Assembly (NCBI GenBank): GCA_030374765.1
Contig: JARGXX010000088.1
Location: 992,001-1,056,000 of the forward strand
Direction of reading: 5' to 3'
From: Agarophyton chilense
Taxonomy: Eukaryota; Rhodophyta; Florideophyceae; Gracilariales; Gracilariaceae
Length of the DNA stretch: 64,000 nt
The notes under the pieces are model-generated. The model saw only the letters and a program-made list of their open reading frames with translations. It ran no database searches and was not told the DNA's origin. Each line of letters opens with the position of its first letter. The stretch's first letter is position 1. The position numbers and the translations under genes were made by a program. This document shows positions 2,626-52,360 of this stretch, in pieces.

Positions 2626-2657
2626 GGCACCTTCTTCAGGTTAGTCCCAACATCCTT

Positions 2658-5135: not shown

Positions 5136-5442
5136 TACGCCAAACGTTCGGTGTTTTCCTCCTGTACGGGAGGGGTTGAGTCCAAGTTTGGTGTTTCCTT
5201 GATGGTATTGACCTGTACCGGTGTACGGGGTTGGATCCTATTTGGTGCATGCGTTGAAGACCCATAGAGGCGTTCGTGATTCTGCATGCGAGCCTGAATC
5301 AACTGGTCTCTCATCCCTGGAGGTAAGTTAGCGCAATTGTTTGCCAAATGGTCTGTCGCGAGTCAAAACCAGCAAACGAGGCCTCCAGTTTGGGGGTCCC
5401 GCGTTACCATTGAGGGGGGCTTCGAAACCTGGTTGGTAAGAG
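5135..5442 (-). pseudogene. Element A gag C-terminal remnant
   Basis: A minus-strand frame directly upstream of and overlapping the protease frame by one base (5135-5347) reads a hydrophilic peptide (LPPGMRDQLIQARMQ) as expected for the end of Gag. No CCHC knuckle is visible. The frame is lost at 5442, where the LTR of the palindromic composite starts, so most of gag is missing. Confidence 0.4.
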
Positions 5443-6329: not shown

Positions 6330-6364
6330 TATCCCCCTCCTTAGGTGACGAACACGCCGTCGAC

Positions 6365-14874: not shown

Positions 14875-15076
14875 GAAAACATCCGATGGGGATAAAGGAA
14901 CAGAAGATCTGGATAAGGGCCTTTGGAAGAAGGAGAAGATGCACAGAAGACCTGGAGAAGGACACTCGGAAGAAGTGGAAGAGAAGAAAGAAAACAAATA
15001 CGTCATAGACGGAAGCAGTTTACTATTTTCGAAGTTGCCGCACACACTACCGCACAGCGGGATATACTAACCAAGA
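14875..15076. other. Spacer between convergent pol and accessory ORF, right arm
   Basis: Mirror image of 8234-8445; purine-rich on the plus strand. No gene. Confidence 0.35.
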
Positions 15077-20405: not shown

Positions 20406-21908
20406 TTAATCGTACCTCTCAACGGCGTGCCGCACCTGCTTTAAAAAGCTATGCATCTTTGGCAACACGCGTTGAAACCGCTTAAAACGTTTTGCGTGCG
20501 ATTTGTCTGCAGACTGAATTGCTATGCTAACGTGAGCCCTCTCGCTCTCGTTGGAGATCTTCAGCTTATCTCCCAACCGCTCAAATTTAGAGTTCACGTC
20601 GCTTATCCTGTCAATCACCTCGGAGTAGAGCCTATGGACGTGATCATAGTTCTTCCGGAGCTTTTCCTCCTCCGCCTTATCCTTCACCTCCGGAACCGGC
20701 CGCATGATGTGCTCTGCCGCGCTGCTTAGCTCCGCCTGCAGCAGATCGTCGTTCATGACGCCCACCCGCAACTTGCCCTCGACCAGACCACTGACTTCGA
20801 CGCGATTTTCCTTCATTCGCTTCTTTTCGATGTCGTTGTAGTCAGTGTAGTCGTCGTACACCTCCCGCCACGACCGCTTCTTCAGCCGGTACGTGCTGCC
20901 GGATTTCTCCGCCACCTCGCCCAGCGCCTCGCCAAGAACGACGCCCTCCATGTTGCGCGCCTCGTGACGACGACGGATGGCCGTCATCGTCATATCGCCC
21001 AGCGCGAGCGAGTGCACCACATGCCGACGGACGTCTTCTGGATCGTCCATTTTCCGGCGGGTACCCACGCGAGGGCTACTCGGAGAGCGCACATTGGGGG
21101 TTGGCACACTCGAGTTGGAGCGCGGCGAGATGCGCGCCTTGGTGGGCGTCTGCTGCCGAGCGGGCTTAGACAGCCGCGCGCTCGGAGGGCGCGGCCCCAC
21201 TGCCCCAACAGCGTTGCGCGACTGTGGAGCAGAGCGCTTGGGGGGGGCCTGGCGGCCATTCTCCGTGGGCGAGGCGGGCGCAGATCTCAGAGCCGGCACG
21301 CTTCGTATCCGGATACCAGCGTTGTTGCCGTTCTGCTTCTGCGGCGGTGGCGGGGGTGGGGGAAAGTTGGGGGTGGGGCGGCGCGGGGCGGCTCGCGGGC
21401 GCTTCTGGGTGGGTTTGCCCGCCCGCGGCGCTTTGGAGCTGTCTGACGCAACGTCCGGCTCCTTCGACGCGCGCTTGGAGGCAGAAGCGTTGCGAGATTG
21501 AACGGCTCGCTTCTGTGAGGGGTATGACCGCTTGTTCGGGAAGCGGTCGATCTCCATCTCGCGGTAGATGGGCCCCACAAGACGCATGTCGTTGCCTCTG
21601 CGCGAGTACAGGACTGAGCGAGCGGTGTCGGCGTCGTGGTCGGTGATGGAGCGTGTGGTGAAGGGGACATCCGAGCTGTTGGGGATGAAGATTTTGCCCT
21701 GCTCATCATCATCAAACTCGATGGAAGCATCAGCATCTTCGCCATTAAGCAGGGCATCGACGATGTCGGCGGAGAGCTTGACCGGGTAGCTCACAAGGGC
21801 TGGAACACCGACAGCATGGATGGGGTGTGATTTGGCCGAGGGCGACAGCGGCGGCAGGTATGTGGGCTTACAATCCAACTCCGATTGGTGTTCGTTGGCC
21901 TTTGACAT
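20406..21908 (-). CDS. ELL: RNA polymerase II elongation factor ELL homologue
   Basis: A 500-residue intronless reading frame from the ATG at 21908 (MSKANEHQ). The frame is open further upstream to 22235, but that part is low-complexity Pro/Ser and looks untranslated. ELL raises the catalytic rate of RNA polymerase II in the nucleus, as part of super/little elongation complexes in animals. Three matches support the call: an N-terminal ELL-like segment (GKIFIPNSSDVPFTTRSI, about residues 85-105); a winged-helix-like region at about 290-350 (VVHSLALGDMTMTAI, then YRLKKRSWREVYDDYTDY); and a C-terminal occludin/ELL-type helical domain at about 405-500 (YSEVIDRISDVNSKFERL ... VRHAVERYD). The middle is a long basic Pro/Ser-rich linker including a seven-proline run near residue 185. 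Weak N-terminal conservation is usual in distant ELLs. Confidence 0.72.
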   Translation of the reverse strand: MSKANEHQSELDCKPTYLPPLSPSAKSHPIHAVGVPALVSYPVKLSADIVDALLNGEDADASIEFDDDEQGKIFIPNSSDVPFTTRSITDHDADTARSVLYSRRGNDMRLVGPIYREMEIDRFPNKRSYPSQKRAVQSRNASASKRASKEPDVASDSSKAPRAGKPTQKRPRAAPRRPTPNFPPPPPPPQKQNGNNAGIRIRSVPALRSAPASPTENGRQAPPKRSAPQSRNAVGAVGPRPPSARLSKPARQQTPTKARISPRSNSSVPTPNVRSPSSPRVGTRRKMDDPEDVRRHVVHSLALGDMTMTAIRRRHEARNMEGVVLGEALGEVAEKSGSTYRLKKRSWREVYDDYTDYNDIEKKRMKENRVEVSGLVEGKLRVGVMNDDLLQAELSSAAEHIMRPVPEVKDKAEEEKLRKNYDHVHRLYSEVIDRISDVNSKFERLGDKLKISNESERAHVSIAIQSADKSHAKRFKRFQRVLPKMHSFLKQVRHAVERYD

Positions 21909-23023
21909 GGCGCACTGGTTTGGTGGACGAGGTGTGGTGAGCGTAAGGCCGGCAAGGCGATGACGACAGTCGTGCGGTGAGGGTGATGGTGGTGATTGCG
22001 GTGGGGTGCTTTGCCAAGTGTGGGAGGCAGACGGCGGGGGCAAGTGTGAGGGGGGTTGGGGAAAGAAGGGCGAGTGTGGGGGCCAGGGGTGGGGGAGGGA
22101 AGGTGTGAAGCGGGGGCGGAAGACAGCAAGAAAAGAAAGCTTGGGTGGGTGATGCAGTTGCTGTTGCTGGGGTGGGCGGGGCGAGGAGGAAGCGAGGGGG
22201 AGTGGAGAGGGGGAGCTGGGCCTTAAGAAGAGCACGAGCAGAGGGTTTTGTCAGCAACGAGAAGCACGGCGAGCGGAGAGTGACGGAAGCGGGAGAGGAG
22301 AGGAAAAGGTGTGTCCATAAGCGTCCGCTAGCACTGGGGGACAGCCTCCGGAAATTCAGCTGTGAGTCGAACTTCAGCGAGTATTTGCTGTCGGGTCATG
22401 TTCCAATCTGCGAAACGCCGTGCAATTCTATCAGCAGAAGGATGAAAGTGAGATCTCGGGGGGGCATAATGCAGGGTATACTGCTCTAGGCCATGGCATT
22501 GATTTCGTGTCGAAATGGTTCGGGGAGTTGGCATGCGACGTGAAGAAGTAGCGGGCATTTGGTGGGCGTCATTGTGCATTGTGACGGGCGAGGAAATGGC
22601 GAGTGGCTGCTACGAGGCGACGCAGACGAGCTCGGGGAAGACGGACGGTAGTAAGAGACGGGGTGGAAGGAGACCGTGGCAAATGGGCGGGCATGTTGGA
22701 AGAAGCAGGCGTTGGCGATTACATGGCTTAAAGAGAGGCAGCGCTCACACGAACGCACCTGACGGCGAGCGCAAGCACCGGGCGGAGGGGAGCGAACGGG
22801 GGGTGACGGAGAACCGGTGGACGTTAATTTATTCTCGGGTGCGACGCAGATTAGGACTAAATCTGTCTTCGTAGTGCGGTGCCGCACGTGTTTGTCGTGT
22901 GCAATCTAGCAGGGAGTTGAAACACTGCCAGCGTGGGTGTTTGTGTTTGTGCAGTCTACAGTCGCCGGAATTAAAAAGCAACGTCCAAGCAGCGTATTGT
23001 TTTGTATCCGTCATGGTTTTCTA
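21909..23023. other. Intergenic region between ELL and NDPK genes
   Basis: It holds the ELL 5' region (purine-rich on the plus strand, 22140-22220) and, at its right end, the NDPK 3' flank. Short frames here show no domain. No further gene is supported. Confidence 0.5.
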
Positions 23024-37734: not shown

Positions 37735-39186
37735 GTGAAAACTTCTTCAACCGTAAGGATTGAAGTTTTCAATGTTCAACACCTTTCGGTCGATCAACGA
37801 AACAATGTCAGCACCCAATGCGCAACCGAACGCCTCAGCTGGCAGCGATTTGCCCCTCGGACAATCAAGCTTCGTTTTGACGTCCGTCAGTCACCTGTGA
37901 CTGAACCTCCCCAATGCCGCCTTCATCCAAACATTTCTGAACCAGTATGATCAATACACAACTAAAATCAAGGCTCGAGCACTACATCTGGCTGTTCTAG
38001 ACTGCACCACTATAGGACCAGTACGTCCGGTTAATCTTACGTATTATGTAGACCAAGAATAGCTACAGTCTACGGTAGAGGTTGGTTTCGTCGATGATGT
38101 AGAGAATGTGGAAAATCTTACGGACATTGCTCTCCGAGCGTACTAAGAGTCTGAATCCAAAGAGCGCAAAGAAGTCCTCACGATTTCTGCTCTGGATGGG
38201 CTAATAGAAAAGAAATTGAAGATGGATATGTCAGACAGGTCTGCCCGATCCAGAATGGAATCTCTTTTCACTCCATACATATCAATCTTGCGTAGAAATG
38301 GGTTAAGTTGGGTAGTCAAGTCCAACCGGAAGACGGCCATATGGCACATTATATCTGCAGTAAGGCCCAAATCGCTTCGTGTAAGATTGGAGACGGACTT
38401 CCAATTTGCGTATGCAGATCTCAGGAAGAACTTCGTGATTTCATGCAACACGCCCTCCTTGGGTCAGAAGCGTTTGAGATGATCGATACGGAGCCAGTCC
38501 CCATCACGAAGCATGGTTATTGGAAATCAGAATCATCTACACCCAGCAAGTTACCCGAAACGGACAACTTGCAGACGGAACAGAAGGAGAACCCGTCGAG
38601 GAAGGCGAAATCGAAGTGATCCGCCCCACCATGCCCCTTCGGTCCATGCAAACAGCAAGGACTACTTCATTGGATTGGTGACTGCAGCAAGTCTACAAAT
38701 AAGCAGAAGAATGCCATGAAATCAGAGCTTGACGCGCTCAAGGCCGCTGACGGTCCAGCGCGTTCTACACGTTCCCAGAAACAGAAGCCAGGTAACAGTT
38801 CTGGCGCTGTAAAGTCTCAAGGTAACGCAGTAAATCGACTACAGGACCCTCAGGAATCCAATTCAGATGCACTGTCCTGTGTTCTCACCGTGTCAGACGG
38901 CAGACCGTTCCTACGGGCTACCGGAAGGTGCGATAATGGAAGTGACGACAGCATTGTTTCCACTGGCCTCGCCCAGAGAGCTACCCTTCAGGGAAATGGT
39001 AGAATCAAGTCGATCACACCCGTGCACCTCAAATTGGCTCTCAGAAGAGAAGCTCACCCTCAGACATTCGCCTTTTCACGGACATAGCAAGTTCCACGCA
39101 CAGTACTCCAACTTGCCTCTGGAAGCCTTGCCCTGGCCAACATCACCCACTTCATTTCCGATGAGGACCTCTCCTGTGAAGAGCTG
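37735..39186 (+). pseudogene. Element B Gag and protease
   Basis: Broken plus-strand frames. The 38216-38482 part (LFTPYISILRRNGLSWVV; ADLRKNFVI) looks Gag-like. The 38716-39087 part contains GRCDNGSDDSIVSTGLAQ, which lies where a retropepsin loop is expected (D-N-G instead of D-T/S-G) in a gypsy group with the same spacing to RT. Frameshifts separate the parts. Confidence 0.5.
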
Positions 39187-40050
39187 TTGACGGGCCTGCC
39201 TGTGCTACAACACCTTTCGGTGGACACAGAGACTTTGCTTGACAACAATCGCAGCCAACTGGATGGAACTGATTGCTCGAGAGTGGGAAACCCAACAAGA
39301 TGCCACAATGGTGGTTATGTCAGTCGACTCATGAACTCAGAACAACCCAAAAGCCGTAACGGTGACTCCAGTTCCAAGACAAGCTTGGACCCGAACAGAC
39401 CCCGCGCGAATTACCACGTCGCGTGTTCTGAAGATGACCCATTCCCAGACCCATTTTTGCTTGACCCAATTGACTTTGAACAGCATGAGGACGTCGTGAC
39501 AACGGTCGATGGAATGAAAACCGCCGCTCAACCGCATAGAATGCCAGCCTCTCACGTAACTTCTCTGCAAGGCATCTTACAGGACCACGTTGACATTTTT
39601 CGCACCTCGTTATCAGCTGGTCCACCGGCAAAACTCAAACCGCTCAAGATTGACCTCACACCGGATGCACGCCCCGTTCGCGTCAAACTGCGGAATTACT
39701 CCCAAGAACAGCGTCAATTCTTGGACAAATTTGTACGAAACCTGGTGAATGCCGGAGTGGTGTATTTCAACCCAAGTGCAGCATGGGCCTCTGCCCCACT
39801 CCTCTTCCCCAACACAGTTCCAGCACGTTTTCGCTTCACTGTAGACTTGCATCCTGTGAACAAGTACACCGTTCGGCATCAATTCCCAATGCCCAACGTC
39901 ATACAGGAGCTTTATAAACTGGCGGGCTCTAGATATTTCACTACATTTGACCACTCACACGGATATTGGCAGCTTCCTTTGGCCAAGAGCTCTCAACCTC
40001 TCCAGTCGTTCATCACCCAGGATGGGATATTCATTCGAACAAGAGGGCTA
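39187..40050 (+). pseudogene. Element B RT, N-terminal part
   Basis: Open plus-strand frame: DHVDIFRTSLSAGPPAKL, KIDLTPDARPVRVKLRNY, the fingers RFTVDLHPVNKYT and the palm FTTFDHSHGYWQLPL. It is cut at 40050 by the Plavaka-type transposon. Joining across the insertion (removing one TA) gives FIRTRGLHGTTN, the normal RT motif. Confidence 0.88.
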
Positions 40051-40073
40051 CGTCTGTGTCCTCGGAATGCTAG
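40051..40073. repeat. Plavaka-type element, left terminal inverted repeat
   Basis: Starts CGTCTGTGTCCTC after the TA duplication; pairs with 50595-50617 (20 of 23). Confidence 0.85.
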
Positions 40074-40303
40074 ATAAGTGTGCTAGGTGGCTAGTTTTGT
40101 AAATAAAAAGCCAAAAAAACAAAGAATTTTGCAGATTGCGGTAGTTCGGCACCTGAAAAAAAATTTTTGGAAATAAGAACTCCATGCATCTTAGTGTTTT
40201 GACCACTTAATGCATTTTAATCTGCATTTGCAGTTTACTGGTCACTTTTGACCGCTCTAGGTGGAGATCCATACCAAGGCAGTCGTCAGTACCTTCTACC
40301 TCC

Positions 40304-41251
40304 TTACTGGCCCTTTTGCTTACTAGGCTCCAGCGTTCCACCGGGAGGGTATTTGAGGTTGAAGAAGTCCAACACCGCATTCTTAACCTCGTCCACCTCC
40401 CCACTGCTCAAGTTCCTCACACCCGGCTGCCCCACCACACACACATTCCCACCCTTCTTCTCCACATCCTTACCAACCCTCCTCTTCTTCAGCCGACTCT
40501 CTCCAACTCCTCCCCCTTTCCATTCCTCTCTCCCCTTCTTCATCCCAGCCGGCTCCCCGCGTCTCCCTGGCGTCACCGGCGACCCTTTCGCTCTCAAGGT
40601 CTCCTCTCCCACCTCCTTCAACACCTTCCGCGCACCCCAAATCTCTCCCACCCCTTCCATGTGCACTTCCAACACCTTCACACGCCTTTTCAGTTCCTCA
40701 TTCGCCCTCTACAGCTTCCCCATCTCCAGCCCCATGCATTCCACCATCCCATCTATATGATCCCTGGCCATCTTTCCAGCTAGCCTCACCCCCCTCCGAA
40801 CGTTCGATATCGCCTCCAATGGCACCCCACCCTCCGACGCACTCAGCACTACCCCTTTCAACTCAGAAAAAACTTCGGAAATGCAGTCATCCACCTTCTC
40901 TTTTAATCCACCTCCAAGCTCCCTTACCCGCTCCTTGATCTCCTCACAAAACTCTTCTTCCGGTCCCCCTCCTCCACCTCCCCCACCCTCCATCACCCCT
41001 TCCGCACCACAATTCTCCTTCCTCCCGTCCTCCTCCTCTTCCTCCTCCTCCGCCAGTGGCGTCTCCAGCACCACCCTCTTGTCCAACAGCGCATTCAGAT
41101 CCTCGTCCGGTACGTATCCCCTGTGAACATGAAATATAGACCGCTTCGGTACTGCAATGTGCCATAATGTGGCCCTCAGGGCTTCGCAAGGGCCGATACT
41201 GCTTGGTAACACAGTGGATGTCGTAATCTTGATATCTTCGACAGTTGTCAT
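40304..41251 (-). pseudogene. Accessory coiled-coil protein of the Plavaka-type element
   Basis: One minus-strand frame of about 315 codons, interrupted by a single TAG at 40709 (..LEMGKL, stop, RANEELKRRVKVLEV..). N-terminal globular part (FHVHRGYVPDEDLNALLD); acidic run of seven Glu; glycine run; then heptad-rich helices (CEEIKERVRELGGGLKEKV). The C-terminal part is basic (RLKKRRVGKD) and ends NLKYPPGGTLEPSKQKGQ. No known domain. The stop lies within a predicted coiled coil, so the ancestral protein was probably full length. A DNA- or complex-scaffolding role is a guess. Confidence 0.6.
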
Positions 41252-41385
41252 TCACTATGAGAAAGTGAAAGCAAGTGCTGCTCTCACGCGTTTCAATCCA
41301 GTTGTTCAGGAGTTTCTACTGAAAGACGACTGATCACTATTAAAAGAAAAGGGGACTACTCCACATATTACCTCAAATTGTACTC

Positions 41386-41392
41386 TTTATTG
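41386..41392 (-). promoter_or_regulatory. Polyadenylation signal downstream of the dioxygenase-like gene
   Basis: AATAAA on the minus strand about 25 bases after the outer stop codon at 41415. Confidence 0.5.
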
Positions 41393-41414
41393 TTCAATAG
41401 GTAACAGATACTAT

Positions 41415-42476
41415 CTAGTCGTCGTCGTCATCCATTATCATACCGCCGTCTTCATAGTCTCCATCTGTTTTAGCCGAGTTGAGACCCATCCCAGGTTCAT
41501 CATCCTCTTCTTCATACTCCTCTTCCCCACTTTCAACAAGTTCCATTTTATAATCTTAGTCCAACTCCTCATCCTCATCTACCTGGACGTCTTCATCATC
41601 ACCCTTGTTGGAATCACCCTCTTCGAACTTAGGCCGAAATGCTGGTTGCCTATGCACTGCGTCCGGTAGCTTGTACCCATCCGGTACCAAGTACATGTGA
41701 TACCTCATGCAAACTTCCTTAACCAATGAATCCTCGTATCCAGCTCCAGCATGAAACACATCTCCTCTTCCAATAAAAATGGAGTACGGCGGAATCCTGA
41801 ACTTCCTCACTACCATCGTCCGAGACATCCGCTTCAAGCTCCTGTCGTCGGGCACGTACATGTTATGTGACCTCTCACAAACCCAAAGCATAAACGAACT
41901 CGCTCCCGACCCCATCATGAAGAACCCTGGAACATCTCCGACGTTCTTCTCGGCATCGGTCAGTCCTCGAAAACCCGTATGTAACACCTGCCTTGGACAG
42001 CCCTCCGCCGTACACAGCACTCGCCCCCCTGTTTCAGGGGCATACATCCTCTTCTTCCCCGACCGGTTGTTGCACAACCGAAGAGCGGCCGCAATCTGTC
42101 TAAACCTCGCATCCAACAATGCCCTTTTCCTCACCATTAAAACGTTGTTCTCGTTCCCCTCCACAGAATCCACAATCCTCACCTTCGTCGTAATGTACCG
42201 CCCAACTCCCTTCATTCTATCTCCAGCGTCTCTCTCCTCACCAACGTTGATTATAGGGTCCCATTTCTTTCTATTCTTTTCAATCGTTAAGTCCGGCTGG
42301 TTCAAGAAATCCGTCTGGAAGAACTCTAGCAAAGTCTCAGTCACATCCCCATCGAAGTTTACCCCCCTCTTCTTCGCCTCATCCGCCATGCCCTTGTCCG
42401 TGGCAAACTCTTCCAGCACACAAAATCCTTTCTCCATCAGCTCACTTCTCTTAGTCGCGAAGTACTCGCGAGCCAA
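41415..42476 (-). pseudogene. 2OG-Fe(II) dioxygenase-like protein of the Plavaka-type element
   Basis: A 306-codon frame from the Met at 42476, then a TAA at 41556, after which the same frame continues 46 codons with an acidic tail (ESGEEEYEEEDDEPG ... IMDDDDD) to 41415. About 353 residues in the ancestral form. The core looks like a double-stranded beta-helix dioxygenase. CPRQVLHTGF (about residue 165) corresponds to the iron-binding H-x-D, here H-T-G. SIFIGRGDVFHAGAGY (about 240) carries the distal His, with CMRYHMYLV following for the co-substrate Arg. In transposons such enzymes may oxidise methylated bases (TET/JBP-like), but this sequence alone does not show the substrate. Assignment is moderate; the D-to-G change would abolish iron binding. 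Confidence 0.5.
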
Positions 42477-42728
42477 GTCCTATCCCCACCAGCCAGATTG
42501 TTTCCCGATGTAGCTTTTCGCGGAGTGGCGCGTGGAGTACCCCGCGGAGTACCCCTCGCTTTCGCTTTGTCTCGAGTCATCATTTGAATCGGATCGTAGT
42601 CGGTCGAGGTTGCAAATGGTCGCAGAGCGCTTTGAGCCTTTTATGGTATACAGACTAAGACGTATTGGATCGAGCTCCTTTGGTGGCGACTATCCGGAAC
42701 ACTCCCGAGAGCAGTTCGTTGCAATCAG

Positions 42729-42780
42729 CCTGAACGACGTCCGCTTAGTTTCAACCTGAGCTACGTCCGCTTAGTTTCAA
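42729..42780. repeat. 26-bp tandem repeat, two units
   Basis: Both units end ACGTCCGCTTAGTTTCAA; they differ at two or three positions near their start. Confidence 0.8.
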
Positions 42781-42875
42781 ACTCAAGAAACTCCTTGTCT
42801 CTTTCCATCGCAAACACGCCTATTGGCTTGGTAGGCGATCCAAGAAGAAAAATTAATAATTAAAAATATCCTGAC

Positions 42876-42942
42876 GGCCGACAGAGGTGCGCTCCGACTT
42901 CATCGGTGGTCCCGATGAAGTCCCCGCGCACCTCTGTCGGCC
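42876..42942. repeat. Hairpin 1 of the control region
   Basis: 67-bp palindrome: outer stem GGCCGACAGAGGTGCGC / GCGCACCTCTGTCGGCC (17 bp), inner stem GACTTCATCGG / CCGATGAAGTC, loop TGGT. Confidence 0.85.
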
Positions 42943-42993
42943 TACATAATACATATAATTTTCTAATTTTTAGGACGCCCAGGTGTACACGGT

Positions 42994-43080
42994 GCATTCT
43001 GTCGGCCGATAGAGGTGCGCGGGGACTTCATCGGGACCCCCGATGAAGTCGAAGCGCTCCTCTGACGGCCAACAGAATGC
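42994..43080. repeat. Hairpin 2 of the control region
   Basis: 87-bp imperfect palindrome sharing its core (GAGGTGCGC, GACTTCATCGG, CCGATGAAGTC) with hairpin 1. The outer stem is GCATTCTGT / ACAGAATGC with CGGCC arms inside. Confidence 0.8.
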
Positions 43081-43247
43081 AACCAGGATAGCTGCGAAGT
43101 CGTTCCGCAACAACCGTTCTTCCGTGCGCGCTCCTCAACCGTACTCACAATCTTTCCGTACCCACCGGCACCCACCCGCACCCGCTGCTCTCTTTCACTC
43201 AGGTCCTCGTGACGACCGCCCGTGAGGTTGTTTGAACACGTACATAA

Positions 43248-44753
43248 ATGGCTCCAGAACCCACGAGAACTTCTTCATCGCCTGCGGCAGACACCTTCGA
43301 AATGGGTAAACTGTTTGGTACGGGGGATGAAGTTATCCGGGCGTGTCTGGATTTGCGTGATCGTTACGCATCAACGAGGCGGGAGGAAGATGAGCCGCAA
43401 AAAGTGGGGCACACTGCATTCATCGATTTCGCAATTGCCAATTGCCACATCCTACCGGAGACCGCGAAGTTTTTTTATACTCTCCTAGGTTCCGACCACA
43501 CCAATTACACAGAAGATGAGCTCCGAGTTGTAGGAATGAGGGGCTCGAACTGTCAGAATTATTTCTCGGCGATGTTGCTGGATATAATGGATGGGGACCC
43601 AGATAGGAGCGTGAGGGACTTTTGGAACGCGTACGAGGAAGTGGAGTTCAAGGGCATCCCGAAGAATGTCACTTTGACAGAGTTCTTCAAAGGTCGGGAT
43701 ACAACCCGAAAGAAGGCGAGCAAAAGCCGGGCTCCATTCGCGACCGACTTCCCGACAATGTTCCAGAGGTTGCTGTTCCTCATTTGTATTCAGTCGGTCT
43801 CTATGGAGAAGAGAAGAGTCTCCCGTAAGCGAAGAAAGCGGGAAAGAACCTGCGATACGCCATTTTTGAAGGTGGCGATTTATGACAAACCAGTAGCTCA
43901 GCGTGTGGGTTTTGGTGTGCAGCTCGTCAATAACGAGTTGGACAGCTTCGCCCAGTATTTGGGATTCCCTGGCGTGGAATTCATGGTTTTGCCCTTTATC
44001 CATCTACGATATTCTGATATGCAGTTCCAGGCAATCGGAAACAGAAGAGATGGGTTCTCTCACAAGGACATGGCCCAACGACTTCTTCCTGGTAGAAACC
44101 GTACTTTATTGGAGGAGGATGTCGTCCCATGGGCGTGGAACCTGCCGGAGTACGTTGACACTCCAATTCGTATGTTGGACAAAGAGTTTCTCGCTGACCT
44201 GCACAAAGTGGTGGTGAATGAGCAGCTTTACTCTATATCAGCTCCGGAAAAATGGGACGTTCTAAAACCGTTTACATACACTTTGCCGAGAGTGTTTGCG
44301 GAGAGATTCGACTGCTTCTCGAACTCTCTTATCTCTACCATCTCGGAATACATATCGCCACTAAAGCTGCGAGGGAGTGTGGAGGTGGAAGTCGTGGCTG
44401 CGACAAAGGCGAAACCTACTATGGTTATGGAAGAAGACGAGATAGAAGTTGTACCCCCTGAGAAAGATTCGGAGGCTCCGGCGGTGGAGGGTGGAGAGGG
44501 AGTGGAGGGTGGGACCTGGAATGAGGAAGAGAACATGGGTGTTGGTCAGCATTCTTCCACAGCTGGACCAAGGTCGGTCGAATCTGAGTCAGTGGATATT
44601 CTGCCGCCTCACGACCTTACCTCTCTGGATGATATAATGTCTCTCCAAAAGTGCGAGTCGGAGATGGATAAGCACTGTCGAATGTACAATTGTACTTTCG
44701 AGAACCTGGTGGAGATTGACGAGACATTGCGCAGCAATGGGTCTCTCCGATAG
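43248..44753 (+). CDS. N-terminal part of methyltransferase-SET protein of the Plavaka-type element (unknown domain)
   Basis: A 501-codon open frame starting MAPEPTRTSSSPAADTF. The first 380 residues look globular (FIDFAIANCHILPETAKFF; VRDFWNAYEEVEFKGIP; RVGFGVQLVNNELDSFAQ) with a basic cluster RRVSRKRRKRER. Then comes an acidic, glycine-rich linker and a short helix-rich end (LQKCESEMDKHCRMYNC). I recognise no family. The frame stops at 44753, but just before this a second frame opens (RDIAQQWVSPIGKVQLVL) leading straight into the methyltransferase. The two were probably one protein separated by a one- or two-base frameshift near 44717-44722. Confidence 0.6.
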   Translation: MAPEPTRTSSSPAADTFEMGKLFGTGDEVIRACLDLRDRYASTRREEDEPQKVGHTAFIDFAIANCHILPETAKFFYTLLGSDHTNYTEDELRVVGMRGSNCQNYFSAMLLDIMDGDPDRSVRDFWNAYEEVEFKGIPKNVTLTEFFKGRDTTRKKASKSRAPFATDFPTMFQRLLFLICIQSVSMEKRRVSRKRRKRERTCDTPFLKVAIYDKPVAQRVGFGVQLVNNELDSFAQYLGFPGVEFMVLPFIHLRYSDMQFQAIGNRRDGFSHKDMAQRLLPGRNRTLLEEDVVPWAWNLPEYVDTPIRMLDKEFLADLHKVVVNEQLYSISAPEKWDVLKPFTYTLPRVFAERFDCFSNSLISTISEYISPLKLRGSVEVEVVAATKAKPTMVMEEDEIEVVPPEKDSEAPAVEGGEGVEGGTWNEEENMGVGQHSSTAGPRSVESESVDILPPHDLTSLDDIMSLQKCESEMDKHCRMYNCTFENLVEIDETLRSNGSLR

Positions 44754-46357
44754 GGAAAGTGCAGTTGGTTCTCACGGACCCGCCGTATAATATACGTGCG
44801 AAGAAGAACAGGAAAAACAGCTGGTACGACGTTCTTAACCGGCAAGACATGGTGAAGACGGCGAAGCTCATCTCTAAACTTCTGCGTCCGGGAGGGCATT
44901 TCGTTATATTCTGCGCGATTGAGCAGGTGAACGAATGGAAAGAAGTGTTCGGTCGAATTGGTGCAAAGGATGAGAATGGACAGAAGAGCAGGTCGTTTGT
45001 CGTGGACAAGGTCCAGCTGCACTTCATTCGCTCTCAAGGCAATCCGATGCGTAATCTCGGACGTAGTTCGTGCTCCCTGATTCCCGGAACAGAGTACGCC
45101 ATTCATGGAGTTCGCAGCGGGTTGTCCTACGCCGAACAACATGGCATGGTGAACTATGAGAACTTCAGCTATGTACCATCGCGATATCCGGGCTACTATA
45201 GCGTGATTGACCAAGTGCCTCCCATGTCGAATGGTGAAACTCTTCTATGGAGAAGGAAGAATGCCAAAGGAGCAGTTATGTATCAGAAAGTGCGGGCGGA
45301 ACAGAAGTCACGCGCTTTGCTGAAGGAGCTCATCAGCAGGTTTTCTCAGCCGGGAGACATAGTGGTGGACCTCTTCGCCGGAACATTTTAAACGGCCATG
45401 GCATGCATGGAACTGGAAAAGCACCGTCAGTTTCTAGGGTGTGAGCCAGATCCACAGTGCTTTGCTCATGCGAAGCACGCCGCTACAGTGAAATTTGCGT
45501 CATGCATGCGGAACAACGAGACGGACATTCATATAACGCAAGATGTTCGGAACGCTGTGACTCGAGTGACAGGCTTGTTTCCGGACGTCGTCATAAAGCG
45601 TTCGAAGTCCTGGAAAACACCTACCGGATTTCCCGAGCATCAGATGTTTCCACCCCATATCGTGGATTTTCTCTCCTCCATGTGGCAGGATAAGAATATA
45701 TCGGAGATTGGGCGACGGCAGGCGCTGTATGAGTGGCCAAGAAGTTTTCAAGGAAAGATGTCACTGTTGGATTGGAATGCTATTCTGGCAGTGGAGGCGA
45801 CAGTATGTGGTTGTCGGAAGGCAAATGCTGGTGTTGGTGTGTACAAAACACGCCGGGTGATACAAGGTGAGACTGTTTGTTACTTTTACGGGACTTTGGT
45901 GTACCATGATCTTTCAAATCGGAAGGAAGTTCATAAGGCATGCGGAGGGGGGCTATTGAAAGCGACTGCTGATCGTTTTCGGCAGTACGCGATGGAGATA
46001 AGCGTCCGAGGGGAAGTGTTTCACAAGCTACCAGGAAGAATTAGTGGGGTGTCTCTTATTCCGCTGTGGATTGTCCCTGCTCCATTCTGCTTGGGGGGAA
46101 CGATTAACGACCCCAAGTATGTGGAAGGGGGTAGGGACAGGAATGCGGTTGAAGACGGGTTAATGAGACGCCGAACTGCAAATGTTAGGGTCATCAGAAC
46201 TCCGGGGACGGGGCGGACCCCATTTCAGTTGAGAGACTATAGATTGCTTTCTGTGCAAGCAATTCGAGATATAGAAATAGGAGAGGAGCTGTTCGCGGAT
46301 TATGGGACAGAGTATATCTGGAGTATGAATAACACGCCAGTCATAGTAATCGATTAA
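44719..46357 (+). pseudogene. DPPY-class DNA methyltransferase fused to a SET domain
   Basis: One frame with a single TAA at 45389. The methyltransferase has the catalytic motif LVLTDPPYNI (44779-44790), then a target-recognition-like part, then the AdoMet motif GDIVVDLFAGTF (to 45388); motif IV before motif I is the order of beta-class N6-adenine/N4-cytosine enzymes. After the stop the frame continues TAMACMELEKHRQFLGCE, exactly what follows motif I in this family, so the TAA is a mutation (probably from a Ser codon). A SET-like domain follows at about 45.82-46.33 kb: GVGVYKTRRVIQGETVCYFYG at its start, GTINDPKYVEG in place of the usual NHxC, and RDIEIGEELFADYG at its end. SET domains methylate protein lysines. 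A fusion of DNA and histone methyl writers on a transposon is unusual. Confidence 0.75.
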
Positions 46358-46680
46358 AAGTGCATCGCTTTTGTTACTTTACTTCATTGTAGTGTACCAG
46401 ATATTGTGGGCTTTTACTATGTTTGTCGCTACATATAACGTCAAAGCGTGACGTAGTACATATGCTAAAGGAAAGTCATGTACACCGAAGGAGAATACTT
46501 TTCCAATATCTGGTGCGTTCGAGCGCATATTTAAAATATCTGAAAAGTTTGGGGGTTTTCTGAGAACACGAAAAGGGTGGAGGTATATTTTTGGAAGCAG
46601 AATGTTTCGAAGCTTCTCTCCCATCCATCGCATTGCAACGCGTGGAAGACCATACCACGATCGCTCTCTCTCTCTTCAAC

Positions 46681-48595
46681 CATGGCTCCGAAGCGCAAAT
46701 CGAGAAGCGAGAACACTAGCGGGCGCGGTACAAAATCACAGCGGCATGGAGGGGATGCGGAGGGCGGAAGGGACAAGGGGCGTAGGCTCCAGGGCGCGAG
46801 TGGAGAGAAGGGAGGCGTGCGCCTGAGAGGTAGATCAAGGCAAGATGGTGGGGAAGGAGAGGCGAGTGGGGGCAAAGGAAAGGCTGTTCGCGCAAAGGAG
46901 ACGGTGACGGAGGAGAGTGCGGAGCAAATCACGTCGCGTACGGAGCAAATCACGTCGCCTACGGGAGAGATGGTGCGGAGCGGCGATGGAAAACGGGATG
47001 GCGTGCGAAGCAACCGCACGCGTGTACCTAGAAGTGGATTGCGGGGGAGGGCGAGCAGAGCTCCAGCGAGGACAAGGAGAGGGGATGCATCCGAGCGGAC
47101 TCTAAGTGCTGTACTCACGTCTTCAGCTGATGTGGAGCCGGTGAATTCATGCTCTGCACCTGAAGGAGATGAAGAGATTCCGAATGAGAGGACGAAGGGG
47201 CGTAAGGAGGGAGAGAGAATGATCGGAGAACGTGGATCCCGCCTCAAAGGCGTTGAAGAAGCAGGGGCATCGTTTACGGGTATGAGGGAAGAGGACGGTG
47301 ATGATGAGATACAGAAAGGGAGAATAGAGAGTAGCCGTGGTGGGGAGGGTAGAATAGGTGGACCCAGTAGTGGTCTAATCGCGGGCGCAAGAGTCGTTCG
47401 AGAGAGAACAGAAGGAGAGAGTGTTGGAGTTACCGCGGGGGAACAGGCGGAAAGATGGGAGGGGGCGAACTTGGATTACGTGGAAGAAAGGAGAGAACGT
47501 GCAAGGGAAAGAATGGGGAGTGTTCGAGTTACAGGAAGAAGAGCGATAGACGAAAGGGAAAGCAGAGAAGTGCATGTGAGTGAGGGGGGGAGAAGGGGGT
47601 TTGCTGGAGGGATAACACGTGGTTCAGGGGAGGAAGGCGATGGAAGAGCAGCAGTTCTTTCTCATCAGGGAGAAGATGTCGTGCGTTTGCCACCGAGGAG
47701 AGGGGTGGGTTTGGGAGTTGAAGGGTTTGAGGTGAACGCAAGGCGAAGGACGCCGGAAGGTATGCGAGCAAGGAGAAACATTGTATTCACAAGGAATAAT
47801 GATAACGCGGAGAAGGCGAATTTAAATGTCGTGGAGAACGCCGTCCGTATAGTGGAAGATGAAGCAAATGATGATGACATAGGTTTGTTGCCGCGGTTGA
47901 TGCTAATTGAGAAGATGAATGTGTTGAAGGGACAAATGGGACGTATGAAGGAAGACAGCTACAGTGTGATGGTGAGTTCGAAAATGACCCAAACGGAGCT
48001 GGATCGGGCGAGTGAGGAAATGAAGCAGCAGAATGTGCTGATTGAGAGTTTGAGGGAGGCGTTGAAAGGTAGAATCACTGGGGAAGGGAGGGGGGAGGGA
48101 GGCGTGACGCGGCGACGAAAGTATGACATTGGAGTGCAGAAATGCTTTTATGGATTTGCACGTCGTGTGTATGATAGGATTCTTCATTATGCAAAACTGG
48201 AGGCATCGGAACTTTGCTTCGACACCGATAATGTGGGTCGAATCTGGAAGAATAGAAGTGAGGCGCTTGGGGAGAGTAGGGAGGAAAGTATGTTTGTGGT
48301 GGGAGAGAAGGAAATGGTTCCGAGATGTCCAATTGAGGTTGCATATGAGATGAGACCGTATACGCCGATGGCGGTGAGGATGAAGTTGGAGTGCTTGAGG
48401 ATGGAGGTGCGGACGGAGTGGAAGGAACGGCGGGAGTTTGTGGAGCTGATGGTGGTGAAGAGGTGTTCTGATCTGAGACGTTCGATGGCGGCGAGCTTGA
48501 TGAGTTTGGAAACGCCGAGGTGGAAGTTGTGGAGGTGTTCGAATGGGAAGATGTTGTATGGGGTGAGGAGGGGGGTGATGTTGAAAAGGGGGTAA
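46681..48595 (+). CDS. Charged accessory protein of the Plavaka-type element
   Basis: Open frame of 637 codons from the Met at 46681 (MAPKRKSRSENTSGRG); the frame is also open upstream to 46577. The N-terminal 400 residues are low-complexity, rich in Arg, Gly, Glu and Ser (for example ERTKGRKEGERMIGERGSR). After about residue 400 the protein becomes structured: LLPRLMLIEKMNVLKGQMG and a coiled coil (ELDRASEEMKQQNVLIESL), then RRKYDIGVQKCFYGFARRVYD to the end. The last 409 bp overlap the 3' end of the transposase gene on the other strand. Function unknown; a basic N-terminus fits DNA or RNA binding. Confidence 0.55.
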
Positions 48596-50100
48596 GACTC
48601 GAAGAGGGAGGGGTATTTTGCGAGGGAGAGGGAGTGGAGTGCTTGGAGAGCTTGTTCCTTGAAGTTGCGCGAGACTCTTGGCTTGCGGGCGAGGAGAGCT
48701 GCTTCGGAGTCCTTGAGGAGGGAGAAGTGTTTGTTGCGGGCTGCAAGGGTGAGGGGAGGAGTTCGAGGGGGATGGGCGTGAGAGTGTTGGTGGAGTTGTG
48801 AGCGAGGGACAGAGCATCTGTGGCAGGGGTGCTGGGGGCGGGTGCCGTGGGAGATGGCGAGAATATCCTTTGCCTCGGGAATGTCTGCGCAGTAGCTGGC
48901 GATGATGGGGTGGCATTGACGAAGAACGCCGTCTGCTTCGCCGAAGGGGAAACCGGGGAGGGCGGAAGAGAAGAGAGGTTGAAGGAGGGAGGAGATGGTC
49001 TGCTGTATGAGTTCCATTTTTGTTTGGCGGGGGATGGAGGAGGAATGAATGATGATATCTGCAACTGGAGAAGGAGTGATTGGGGTGAAGGAGGTGGGAA
49101 GATAACCGAGGAGTGTGAGATTGTCGGAGATGCATTTGTGGCGAAAGGAGTCGGAGAAGTTGAGAAGGGTGATGTGGAGGGGGTAGGAGGTGATGGAAGA
49201 AGATTTGAGAGAGGTAGAGGACTTGTCGGAGTAGATTTGGACGAGGCCGATGAAGGAGTCGATACCGGTGGAGTGAGGGAGATGCCAGACGATGTTATCT
49301 TTTGTGGACTGCATGATGGCGGTCTTGAGTGCGGGGAAGACTTTTGAGCCGAAGGTGGCTGCCATGGGGTGTGCGAAGGCGGAGGAGCCGGAGGCGGATG
49401 TTTGGGAGATGGGGTGGAAAAAGGTGTTCTTGAAGTGTGCGAGGGCGAGCTGTTGTTTGAGGACATGGATTGCGTCTTTCTGGAAGAGGGTTGCGGAGAA
49501 GCGTTTGTGGGGATCAAAGATGGTGGAGGGGGCGAAACCAATGGACCTGATACTCTGGTGGAAGAGGTCTGCCTGGAGCTCGAGGCATTGCTTTGCGGAG
49601 GAGACTGAGTTCCGGAATGTTGATTCGGACAAGTGGGGATCATTAAGGAGAGTGATGAGTTCGTCAGCCTTTCGTTGTCCAAGCTTGGAGGCGATGGAGG
49701 AGATGTAGAGGACCATTTTCTCCAGGTGGGGGTTGTCGAGGGGGGGAGTGGAAGGAGGGAGGGGGGAGAGAGCGAGAGAGGAGGGGGGACCGAGAGGGGC
49801 AGTGGCGACGTGGATGGCGTCCTGGGTGTGGAGGGAGAGAGAGAGCTGGTCTTGGAGGTAGGAGTCATGGTGTGCGAGAGGGACGTTGTCGGAAGGGCGA
49901 TGTGAGGGAGGAAGATGAGGGGGGAGTTGTGAGGTGGACTTGTGGCGTTTTGTGCGGGGGGGGAAGTTGGGTTCATTTCCGCCAGGGGAGAGGAAGCGCT
50001 TGTTGGCGGAGAGGGGATGAGGGCACCTTCTCTGGTGCCGCTGGAGGGCGGGGATTTCTCGGGCGATGAAGGAGCAACCGTTGAAGCAGCAGGAAGGCAT
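48187..50100 (-). CDS. Plavaka-type transposase
   Basis: 637 residues from the Met at 50100 (MPSCCFNGCSFIAREIPALQ). The frame extends upstream to 50217, but the zinc finger start fits best. N-terminal C2H2-like finger (C5, C9, H22, C26). Family landmarks in order: IYSDKSSTSL (about residue 290), PLHITLLNFSD, LTLLGYLPTSF (about 335), ADGVLRQCHPIIASYCADIPE, the Cys motif PCHRCSVPRSQL (about 427) and FPFEHLHNFHLGVSK (about 520). These match the Plavaka/Tnp2-like transposases known mainly from fungi. The part after about residue 570 is less certain because it overlaps the convergent plus-strand gene. The frame is uninterrupted, unlike the cargo genes. Confidence 0.82.
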   Translation of the reverse strand: MPSCCFNGCSFIAREIPALQRHQRRCPHPLSANKRFLSPGGNEPNFPPRTKRHKSTSQLPPHLPPSHRPSDNVPLAHHDSYLQDQLSLSLHTQDAIHVATAPLGPPSSLALSPLPPSTPPLDNPHLEKMVLYISSIASKLGQRKADELITLLNDPHLSESTFRNSVSSAKQCLELQADLFHQSIRSIGFAPSTIFDPHKRFSATLFQKDAIHVLKQQLALAHFKNTFFHPISQTSASGSSAFAHPMAATFGSKVFPALKTAIMQSTKDNIVWHLPHSTGIDSFIGLVQIYSDKSSTSLKSSSITSYPLHITLLNFSDSFRHKCISDNLTLLGYLPTSFTPITPSPVADIIIHSSSIPRQTKMELIQQTISSLLQPLFSSALPGFPFGEADGVLRQCHPIIASYCADIPEAKDILAISHGTRPQHPCHRCSVPRSQLHQHSHAHPPRTPPLTLAARNKHFSLLKDSEAALLARKPRVSRNFKEQALQALHSLSLAKYPSLFESYPLFNITPLLTPYNIFPFEHLHNFHLGVSKLIKLAAIERLRSEHLFTTISSTNSRRSFHSVRTSILKHSNFILTAIGVYGLISYATSIGHLGTISFSPTTNILSSLLSPSASLLFFQIRPTLSVSKQSSDASSFA

Positions 50101-50217
50101 GGTGGGTGGAGGAGAGGTGGTGGGAAAGAAGTTGGTAGGGGGCGTAGACGGAGAGAGAGTATGGCGCACACAGGGCACGTGACAGGGGAGGGCGGTAGAG
50201 AATAATATAGAATGCAA

Positions 50218-50594
50218 GGCACGTGAGGTCTGCCAGGTCGGGCTGCGATTCTATTGCGATTGATATGGATGGTACTAAATGTTCAATTTCTATTTTGAGG
50301 TACATTTTGGGACCGGTTGTTTGTACTAATCTGTCAATCTAGAGCGCACAAAGATTGAATCTGCTCCTGCACCACTTCTCTACTTTTTTACCTTTAAACT
50401 GCGGCGACAGAAAGATTCACGCTTGTTTTACCTCCATCAAAACTAGAAAAACTGCAGATATGTGCTAGTTTTCCTTCCCATACAAACTAGCACTAATGAA
50501 CGAATGAAAATATTTTTGGAAATTAACACCTCCAAATTTGGATAAATTCACGGGTTTTTCGGTCATTTCAATTCGTCCTTTTTTGACCACTGAA
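50218..50594. other. Right subterminal region of the Plavaka-type element
   Basis: AT-rich and non-coding. It contains CTAG-centred motifs in both orientations (GTGCTAGTTTT, AAACTAGCAC near 50462-50493), matching similar motifs next to the left end (40070-40096). Probable transposase-binding sites. Confidence 0.5.
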
Positions 50595-50617
50595 CTAGCA
50601 TTCTGAGAACACTGACG
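50595..50617. repeat. Plavaka-type element, right terminal inverted repeat
   Basis: Reverse complement begins CGTCAGTGTTCTC; followed by the TA duplication at 50618-50619. Confidence 0.85.
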
Positions 50618-52360
50618 TACATGGCACTACAAATACAACCACGCATATGCAGTCTGCCCTGGCCGAAGGCATTCCCGAAGATCTTCGACCTCATCTACTG
50701 TAATGGCTTGATGATATACTCCTTCACCATGCCACCATTCAAGGCCTTCTCAACTGCATCCACTTTCTGTTCTGGTTGTGTTCTGAGCGGCACATGAAGC
50801 TACACCCTGCCGAATGCACCCTTTTTGCGACTTCTATCAGGTGGTGTGGAAGGATCATATCTACTGATGGTGTCAAGTACGACCCTCGACATCTCAACGG
50901 CCGAACCTCCCTCGAACGTCGCCTACTTACAACAATTTCTTTGCGTGTTGCAGTGGATGAGATCTAATATCCCCAATTATTCCAATCTCATTGACCCACT
51001 GCATCACTTCATGAAAAATGTGTACCACCAAGCCGGAAAAAGAACAACTCGAGCAGTAGTCTGAATTGACTTACATACCTTCGGATGGGGAGATATCAAA
51101 TTGCAAGCGTTTGCAGCCTGCAAAGCGGCTCTGGGGAAACTGGTGACATTGTCTCATCATGACAACAATCAGCGCTTCTGCATTTTTACTGACGCATCAG
51201 ACAGCGTCTGGTCAGGAATTGTCACACAGGTACCCTACGATGATTTGATTTTGCGAAACGCGAGTCAACACCATAGCCCAGTTTCATTCTGTTCCGGCCG
51301 GTTCAACAGAATTCAACTTGGCTGTTCCATTCTTGAAAAGGAATCTTACACAGTTTTTGCAACTCTGGACCGCATGCACTGGCTGGTGGCAACCCCCAAT
51401 GGTTTTGACCTTTTCACGGATCATAACAACCTAATTTTTCTTTTTGATCCACTTGCAGTCGCATCTGACTTGCCTCAGACTTCAGTCAGAAAGTTCCTTA
51501 GATGGGTCGTACGTCTTACCATGTACGACTACACCTGCTTCCACATAAAGGGCACAGACAATGTCTGGGCAGACCTACTGGTACGATGGTCAGCCTCAGG
51601 CACAGTACGACGATTGGTCAGAATCCCCGAGCTTCCATCCCCCCCCACTGCAGACTTCGAGTGGCCATCGCAGAAGAAAATCTTCAAAACACAGGAAGCA
51701 AACCGTGACTCCCGCCCACATGACTTACAAGTCAAGCACGACCTATGGAGGACCTTGAGCACGGACGCCATGTGGATACCCGATAAGGCTGTGGACCTGC
51801 ATCTTCGTCTGTGCATCATCACTCACACTGGACCCAGTGGTCATCGCGGCCACAAAGCTACCCTACGTGTACTACAGCGACACTTTTTCCTGGTCCACCA
51901 TGACAGTCGACGTTGCGAACTTCGTTCAGGCCTGTATTCACTGCCTCTCAACAGTTGGCGTTCAAAAGTCCCGCGGCTTTTCGGTCCGGCCTTCCACGGT
52001 ACAAAGCCAAACTATCTTGTTCAGTTTGAATACTTGGAAATTGGGCCGAGCTGCACTGGTGAGAAACACCTCCTACCACTCAAGAATGACCACTCTGAGT
52101 ACAAATGGCCTTTTCCATTTCCAAACACTTCAGCCGATAACGCCAGGCACGCTCTCATCGCTTGGTGTGCCGCCTTTGCTGTCCCGTACGGGTTCGTGTC
52201 AGACGGTCCAACACACTTCCGAAATGAGACACTTATTTCGGTCCCAAAGGGCCTCAAAGTCCCACATCATTTCACCGTACCATATACCCCTTGTAGAAAC
52301 GGTGCCGTCGAGCGCTTGGGCAAGGAAGTACTTCGTGCGTTCCGCGCTATAGTGTCTTAA
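50618..52360 (+). pseudogene. Element B RT (C-terminal part), RNase H and integrase
   Basis: It resumes the RT frame with HGTTNTTTHMQSALAEG. The catalytic box reads WLDDILLHHA with a TAA just before it. RNase H follows (CIFTDASDSVWSGIV; LFTDHNNLIFLF; FHIKGTDNVWADLL), then an H2C2 region (HTGPSGHRGHKATL; frameshift near 51.9 kb; CIHCLSTVG) and an integrase core (LVQFEYLEIG; GFVSDGPTHFRNE; YTPCRNGAVERLGKEVL). In the triad the first Asp is Glu (FEYLEIG), while the second Asp and the Glu remain. The stop at 52360 comes soon after the core. Confidence 0.85.

What the first reader, a model, noticed from the sequence alone, without database searches (positions are those of the whole stretch)
40051..50617. 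A 10.6 kb Plavaka-type transposon carrying DNA- and chromatin-modification genes
Seen: 23-bp terminal inverted repeats, TA duplication, exact restoration of the interrupted RT frame, an open transposase frame with Plavaka/Tnp2 motifs, and in the same unit a DPPY methyltransferase, a SET-like domain and a dioxygenase-like protein. Known: some eukaryotic DNA transposons (for example KDZ elements) travel with TET/JBP dioxygenases. Inferred: this element writes and possibly erases epigenetic marks, perhaps to shield itself or mark its ends. The combination of methyltransferase, SET and dioxygenase is, as far as I know, not described.
Basis: partly seen in the sequence, partly recalled or inferred. 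Interest (0 to 1): 0.92.

Follow-up and report, generated by a model that had tools for sequence, protein, structure and literature searches.

The report
Red-algal transposon with DNA methyltransferase gene
A large jumping-gene family in what looks like a red alga carries a gene that appears to encode a DNA-methylating enzyme fused to a histone-methylating type of domain, so it may influence how its own DNA is marked; the copy read in this window is a broken remnant.

Summary
The 10,567-bp unit at 40051-50617 has 20/23-matching inverted ends and a TA duplication. The host genome holds dozens of copies; six of ten long copies fetched are 18.6-18.9 kb. They encode a Plavaka transposase; one protein of 1,043 aa joining an unassigned helical domain, a bacterial-type (CcrM-like) N6/N4 DNA methyltransferase and a SET domain; a 1,247-aa protein with an HxD...H...R dioxygenase-like motif; and an unassigned protein. 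A 0.8-kb palindrome array lies between the two divergent enzyme genes. The window copy is defective: the methyltransferase-SET frame is broken twice, two thirds of the dioxygenase-like gene and the end of the transposase are deleted, and HTD reads HTG. Phycobilisome-linker and light-harvesting genes point to a red-algal host; no C5-methyltransferase (PF00145) was found. The methyltransferase-SET family has 19 aligned diverged relatives (15 of 20 proteins match SET) and a second home beside a RecQ-type helicase near contig ends. The dioxygenase call rests on a motif alone. Best reading: a transposon with its own DNA- and histone-marking writer; activity is untested.

The parts
40049..40050 (.). 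target-site duplication TA, left copy
   Evidence: sequence; 2-bp duplications in 14 of 17 copies
40051..40073 (+). left terminal inverted repeat (CGTC..)
   Evidence: 20/23 identical to the right end; left end found at 40 scored places of 105 candidates
40304..41251 (-). gene G remnant: unassigned minus-strand ORF, open over 315 aa in copy C135, interrupted by a stop here
   Evidence: 8 of 11 copies (and C88b in part) carry a different left arm
41556..42479 (-). C-terminal part (307 aa) of ORF A, dioxygenase-like motif (HTG here, HTD in 8 of 10 other copies; HAGAGY..R)
   Evidence: no Pfam or PDB sequence match
42479..42640 (-). N-terminal remnant of ORF A, brought next to the C-terminal part by loss of ~2.5 kb
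   Evidence: blastn against copy C10
42871..43075 (.). remnant of the central palindrome array (9-10 exact TGTCGGCCGACA motifs in 6 of 11 copies, 0-3 in 5)
43248..46357 (+). ORF B: helical N-terminal domain + N6/N4 DNA methyltransferase + SET, one 1,043-aa protein in intact copies; here frameshifted at ~44720-44753 and stopped at 45389-45391
44759..45385 (+). DNA methyltransferase domain, DPPY motif then FAGTF motif
45830..46306 (+). SET domain
   Evidence: PF00856 2.2e-4 in the window copy, 8.2e-5 in the intact copy; 15 of 20 family members
46682..48367 (+). ORF C, unassigned protein, C-terminal end lost here
   Evidence: no Pfam match over cut-off
48366..50250 (-). ORF D, Plavaka transposase, missing its last ~508 residues
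   Evidence: PF18759 2.3e-21; deletion mapped
50595..50617 (-). right terminal inverted repeat
50618..50619 (.). target-site duplication TA, right copy
   Evidence: sequence

Best explanation
It is a defective member of a large (18.6-18.9 kb when long), recently amplified cut-and-paste DNA transposon family of a red alga. Shown: family, ends, 2-bp duplication, gene content and order, fusion of a bacterial-type DNA methyltransferase to SET, recent burst. Inferred: the methyltransferase-SET protein methylates adenine (less likely N4 of cytosine) in the element's own DNA and a lysine on nearby histones, so new copies carry a permissive or self-identifying mark that counters host silencing or tells the transposase which ends are its own. 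The divergent dioxygenase-like protein would trim or reset that mark, and the palindrome array between the two genes would be their shared control or loading site. The transposase supplies movement for intact and, in trans, deleted copies such as this one.
Against: No methylation, histone or expression data. Copies within the genome show no purifying selection: private changes give N/S ratios 0.82-1.04 in A, B, C, D, and the few shared changes are A 2N/3S, B 7N/1S, C 6N/4S plus one stop, D 5N/8S, so ORF B's own numbers lean against constraint here. Constraint on ORF B is seen only through distant relatives, 5 of 20 of which have no SET match and some of which lack part of the N-terminal region. 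The NHxC motif of SET reads IND. The dioxygenase has no homology support. None of the ten fetched copies keeps all four ORFs open (A, B and D open in 3 of 10). The palindrome array is lost or reduced in 5 of 11 copies. Five of 17 end-paired copies have no methyltransferase match.
Confidence: 0.5

Rival explanations
1. Self-restraint: the methyltransferase-SET protein deposits repressive marks on the element's own copies and caps transposition, as some bacterial elements are held down by Dam methylation (recalled).
For: Both enzyme genes share one intergenic palindrome array, fitting feedback control; the element persists in dozens of copies.
Against: The family has just undergone a burst, with private divergence of 0.08-1.4% per copy, so restraint was not effective recently. 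No direct data either way.
Confidence: 0.2
2. Passengers: the cargo was captured by chance and has no function for the element.
For: The left arm of 8 of 11 copies carries an ORF with a weak ketopantoate-reductase match (0.044, below cut-off) and another unassigned ORF that may be captures. Private changes are neutral and ORF B's shared changes are 7N/1S. Five of 17 end-paired copies have no methyltransferase match.
Against: ORF B keeps the methyltransferase in 20 of 20 and SET in 15 of 20 diverged members, sits in the same arrangement with the transposase at 55 places, and has a sister outside this genome (P0001, 49% identity, support 100/100).
Confidence: 0.15
3. A TET/JBP-type anti-silencing element as described in fungal Plavaka and KDZ families: the dioxygenase oxidises 5-methylcytosine to escape silencing.
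For: Plavaka families with TET/JBP genes exist in Agaricales (PMC12730594, section read); an HxD...H...R motif is present.
Against: No Tet_JBP match in ORF A; the PE-type TET of fungal Plavaka has HxE (passage), here HTD; no PF00145 in the host; weak CpG effect; host looks like a red alga.
Confidence: 0.08
4. The methyltransferase-SET gene belongs primarily to the contig-end RecQ-helicase repeats (telomere maintenance or spread), and the transposon borrowed it.
For: 26 methyltransferase places share the profile span of that second type, 17 of them within 25 kb of a known contig end; in the one unit read, the gene follows a 1,796-aa RecQ-type ORF.
Against: The two versions are 35% identical and each has its own sister among database proteins (P0001, P0002), so any borrowing is old and its direction unknown. 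Only one unit was read.
Confidence: 0.15

Closest known systems
Plavaka DNA transposons of fungi, including TET+ Plavaka (Kojima 2025, PMC12730594; abstract, sections 18 and 24 part 1, and passages seen)
   Same: Plavaka transposase domain, 2-bp target duplication, element with an epigenetic enzyme as cargo
   Different: Host looks like a red alga; ends CGTC..GACG instead of TGT..ACA or CATCA..TGATG; cargo is an N6/N4 methyltransferase-SET fusion; the dioxygenase-like protein is not recognised as TET/JBP and has HxD, not the PE-type HxE
Plavaka giant repeats of Amoebidium (PMC11244446; passages seen)
   Same: Plavaka transposase beside clusters of intron-poor genes up to 50 kb; hits of those genes lay in dinoflagellates or red algae
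   Different: The passages seen report tyrosine recombinases in these repeats and mention no methyltransferase-SET fusion there
DNMT-carrying retrotransposons of dinoflagellates and charophytes (de Mendoza 2018, PMC5890265; abstract seen)
   Same: A transposable element carrying its own DNA methyltransferase
   Different: Retrotransposons with C5-cytosine enzymes; here a DNA transposon with a beta-class N6/N4 enzyme fused to SET
HarbingerS and MuDR elements with SET genes in Phytophthora (known here only as cited in a passage of PMC12730594)
   Same: SET histone-methyltransferase gene as transposon cargo
   Different: No DNA methyltransferase fusion mentioned in the passage seen
CcrM and related beta-class bacterial N6-adenine methyltransferases (PDB 6pbd)
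   Different: 21% identity; fused here to a helical domain and SET in a eukaryotic element

Membership tests
Plavaka DNA transposons | Plavaka transposase domain PF18759 | tested here: met
   1.4e-22 in copy C10, 2.3e-21 in the window copy, cut-off passed in both
Plavaka DNA transposons | 2-bp (or 2-3 bp) target-site duplication | tested here: met
   14 of 17 copies with matching 2-bp flanks; about 1 expected by chance
Plavaka sublineages A and B (Kojima 2025) | termini TGT..ACA (A) or CATCA..TGATG (B) | tested here: not met
   termini CGTC..GACG in the window copy and the ten long copies; filed only as Plavaka by its transposase, in neither sublineage
Plavaka DNA transposons | C(2)C and H(3-4)H motifs between second D and last E | tested here: inconclusive
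   CHRC and HNFH seen by eye in ORF D; catalytic residues not aligned to a reference
beta-class N6/N4 DNA methyltransferases | PF01555 with DPPY motif before FxGxx motif I | tested here: met
   fold
beta-class N6/N4 DNA methyltransferases | methylation of adenine N6 or cytosine N4 in DNA | not testable with these tools
   needs an enzyme assay or modification sequencing
SET lysine methyltransferases | SET domain PF00856 above cut-off | tested here: met
   23.4 bits against 22.4 in copy C10 (22.1 in the window copy); 15 of 20 members at E <= 0.01
SET lysine methyltransferases | NHxC motif and activity on histones | tested here: inconclusive
   GEELFADY present, NHxC replaced by IND; activity not testable
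TET/JBP dioxygenases | Tet_JBP profile PF12851 | tested here: not met
   no match in ORF A or its domain pieces; the own-genome search was silent but so were its controls
PE-type TET/JBP of fungal Plavaka | HxE in place of HxD | tested here: not met
   HTD in 8 of the 10 other copies, HTN in C70, HTG in the window copy, motif not found in C79
2OG-Fe(II) dioxygenases in general | double-stranded beta-helix fold with HxD...H...R | tested here: inconclusive
   motif present; single-sequence model pLDDT 36 unusable; no Pfam or PDB sequence match

The most novel reading that the evidence does not exclude
A selfish element that installs a private epigenetic code in a genome lacking 5mC machinery: one bifunctional protein writes 6mA on DNA and methylates the adjacent histone, a divergent partner oxidises the mark, and a palindrome array nucleates it. 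The same writer family also serves contig-end (probably subtelomeric) RecQ-helicase repeats. It would be a eukaryotic analogue of phage and plasmid modification systems.
Probability: 0.25. Interest if true: 0.92.

Novelty: new variant of a known kind. Interest (0 to 1): 0.75.

Why it matters
Transposons with TET genes, SET genes or C5-methyltransferases are known separately. A DNA transposon whose cargo is an N6/N4 DNA methyltransferase fused to a SET domain would link DNA and histone methylation in one polypeptide, in a genome where no C5-methyltransferase was detected. It would give a testable source of 6mA or 4mC in a eukaryote, and a case where modification follows selfish DNA and not the host. 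The dozens of near-identical copies, intact and deleted side by side, make modification mapping on long reads a simple experiment.

Tried and rejected
Rejected: that the cargo sits in a nested insertion of its own. The internal inverted repeats that the comparison with C10 showed form the 0.8-kb block between the divergent genes and do not bracket the cargo. Rejected: a dikaryotic fungal host. Fungal_trans gave no match (but its controls were silent), while light-harvesting genes (9 matches, two of them pieces of one gene, so 8 loci) and phycobilisome-linker genes (13 matches: 7 on C39, likely a plastid contig, and 6 on other contigs, one of them the window's own C88) fit a red alga; that no other group has both in this form is recalled. 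Considered and not claimed: a ParB-like domain in the middle of ORF A, suggested by an eye-match (IDGHHR) and by a viral fold hit of ORF B named ParB/Sulfiredoxin; no profile supports it.

Led nowhere: single-sequence fold of the dioxygenase region; homologues of ORF A in the protein database (none at E <= 0.001 among the 7,992 candidates scored), in PDB sequences (a few matches with E of 0.35 or worse) and in viral contigs; selection within the genome (few shared changes). ORF B in viral contigs gave one weak match over residues 663-765, not followed; its methyltransferase domain in phage records gave 48 records, the 15 listed at 26-29% identity, of which one was opened without a telling neighbour. 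The fold search with the whole ORF B model was filled by the methyltransferase domain, so the N-terminal domain (about 1-370) is barely tested and is not claimed to be a new fold. MT-A70 gave no match but its controls were silent. The PF00145 absence is exon by exon and could miss a gene cut up by introns; its controls are prokaryotes.

Literature: one paper search was answered (terms Plavaka + transposon, 9 papers, 8 listed). A second (terms around TET JBP, ParB, SET domain, methyltransferase, transposon, at least 4 of 5) returned 5 unrelated papers, 4 listed. Further searches failed or timed out until the cap. So the statement that no methyltransferase-SET transposon was seen in print rests and on what I saw of PMC12730594, PMC11244446, PMC12633428 and PMC5890265. 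Iyer et al. 2014 could not be had (one search failed, not held) and was not read.
Full report
WHAT IS IN THE WINDOW. The unit at 40051-50617 is bounded by inverted ends identical at 20 of 23 positions and by TA on both sides. Taking out the unit and one TA restores the frame of the interrupted retrotransposon RT, which has a stop of its own just before WLDD. The host assembly is 79.8 Mb in 135 contigs and the window lies in contig C88. The left 350 bases recur at 40 scored places of 105 candidates (the window itself and 39 others at 95-97%), the right 368 at 40 of 118 (39 others at 97-98%), and the methyltransferase-SET block gives 41 rows from 67 candidates (40 scored), 37 of them over at least 1,677 of 1,681 bases. 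The tool scores only the best candidates, so these are lower bounds.

THE WHOLE ELEMENT. I fetched ten long copies, chosen because both ends, or one end and the cargo, predicted at least 15 kb, so they are not a random sample. They measure 15.8-18.9 kb; six are 18.6-18.9 kb. Copy C10 (18,810 bp) has ORF A on the minus strand (1,247 aa stop to stop), ORF B on the plus strand (1,043 aa) and ORF D on the minus strand (1,137 aa); ORF C is open in copies C12 (923 aa) and C135 (960 aa). A, B and D are open together in 3 of the 10 (C10, C117, C86); none has all four open. Seventeen copies had both ends located: flanks match over 2 bp in 14 (TA 6, TT 3, AT 2, AG, CA, TG), where about one would match by chance; C1, C2 and one C71 copy do not match.

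THE WINDOW COPY IS DEFECTIVE. Against C10 it lacks C10 positions 4961-7477, most of the palindrome block and 13976-16560, and in place of 687-3673 it has a 456-bp segment shared with C135. ORF B is in three pieces. ORF A keeps 307 residues of its last quarter and a short start, with HTG for HTD. ORF D has lost about 508 C-terminal residues and ORF C its end.

THE CARGO BELONGS TO THE ELEMENT. Genome searches gave 116 N6_N4_Mtase matches (113 after merging neighbours) and 123 scored Plavaka matches of 235 candidates. 55 methyltransferases have a Plavaka domain 3.3-6.7 kb downstream on the other strand, 38 of them at 6.30-6.42 kb; the window copy is one of the 55. 58 methyltransferase places have no such partner (contig-end type, fragments, others), and neither have 68 Plavaka places: some are shorter copies of this family with the same ends, others may be other Plavaka families, and these were not separated. 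Of the 17 copies with both ends located, 12 have a methyltransferase match and 5 (C1, C16, C99, one C71, one C2; 6.7-15.3 kb) do not; I did not read the interiors of those five. Of 40 scored places (58 candidates) holding the middle of ORF A, 34 have the divergent methyltransferase 2.2-5.0 kb away and 6 do not; that script was given 60 of the 113 methyltransferase places, the contig-end type and most fragments being left out.

THE PALINDROME BLOCK. Between A and B lies about 0.8 kb of nested palindromes built round TGTCGGCCGACA, with 9-10 exact motifs in 6 of 11 copies and 0-3 in 5. As a single strand it folds far below shuffles (z -42, 20 shuffles). Within one mismatch the motif occurs three times in the window, all inside the element. 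Its place between divergent genes suggests a shared control site; this is inference.

HISTORY. The copies form a star: each differs by 0.08-1.4% of private changes, and private changes show no selection (N/S ratio 0.82-1.04 in A, B, C and D). Shared changes are few (A 2N/3S, B 7N/1S, C 6N/4S and a stop, D 5N/8S); those of B do not suggest constraint. This is a recent burst, and open frames in young copies are not evidence of function. Evidence for long-term constraint exists only for ORF B through relatives: P0001 at 49% identity over nearly the whole length (support 100/100) and conserved motifs across the family.

THE HOST LOOKS LIKE A RED ALGA. Light-harvesting (9 matches) and phycobilisome-linker matches (13, one on contig C88 itself) are present; the reading of this combination is recalled knowledge. 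No C5-cytosine methyltransferase was found (controls ring in 10 of 14, all prokaryotes), and transitions at CpG are only 1.36 times those at other C. This argues against 5mC as the mark handled by the element, though an intron-rich gene could have been missed.

A SECOND HOME. 26 methyltransferase places share one profile span of a second type; 17 of them lie within 25 kb of a contig end where that can be told from the coordinates or the known contig lengths. The one read, on C10, encodes a 1,141-aa methyltransferase-SET protein 35% identical to ORF B, downstream of a 1,796-aa RecQ-type helicase ORF, in what looks like a tandem array. Its sister is P0002, so both types have counterparts among database proteins.

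MECHANISM. Shown: anatomy, linkage, fold of the methyltransferase, family conservation of ORF B. Inferred, in order of confidence: ORF B methylates DNA; its SET domain methylates a protein, likely a histone; the marks favour the element (escape from silencing or recognition of its own ends) more than they restrain it; the ORF A protein modifies the same mark. Deleted copies like this one would move only with transposase supplied by others.

NOVELTY. Fungal Plavaka with TET/JBP genes are described, with two terminal classes that this family does not share (PMC12730594; abstract, sections 18 and 24 part 1, and passages seen). SET genes in oomycete DNA transposons are cited there. C5-methyltransferases in retrotransposons are known (PMC5890265, abstract). 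Plavaka repeats with large cargo occur in Amoebidium (PMC11244446, passages), and EnSpm-Plavaka elements in a green alga (PMC12633428, passage). A methyltransferase-SET fusion on a DNA transposon was not seen in these, but only two paper searches were answered. I rate it a new variant of a known kind.

Noticed in passing
L054:1157-4582 and L055:1968-7358 (G000 contig C10 start): Contig-end units pairing a 1,796-aa RecQ-type helicase ORF with a 1,141-aa methyltransferase-SET ORF; 26 methyltransferase places share this type's profile span, 17 within 25 kb of a known contig end.
   Followed up: partly
L021 (element positions 687-3673 of copy C10): 8 of 11 element copies (and C88b in part) carry a left arm with an ORF having a weak ketopantoate-reductase match and another unassigned ORF; the window copy and C135 have a 456-bp alternative, completing a 315-aa minus-strand ORF in C135.
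   Followed up: partly
L021:8373-9162: A 0.8-kb array of nested palindromes (TGTCGGCCGACA units) between the divergent ORFs A and B, varying in motif number between copies.
   Followed up: partly
window 39088-40050 and 50620-52360: The target is a Ty3-like retrotransposon (by eye) whose RT frame already holds a stop just before WLDD.
   Followed up: no
window 10801-14874: A Ty3-like retrotransposon polyprotein in two adjoining frames, by eye from the translation.
   Followed up: no
window 20406-22250: ORF with an RNA polymerase II elongation factor ELL match (1.8e-6), a probable host gene.
   Followed up: no
G000 C77:806252 (-) and C77:810758 (+): Two methyltransferase matches in opposite orientation 4.5 kb apart with equal scores and frame lengths, each with a Plavaka partner: possibly an inverted duplication of an element copy.
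   Followed up: no
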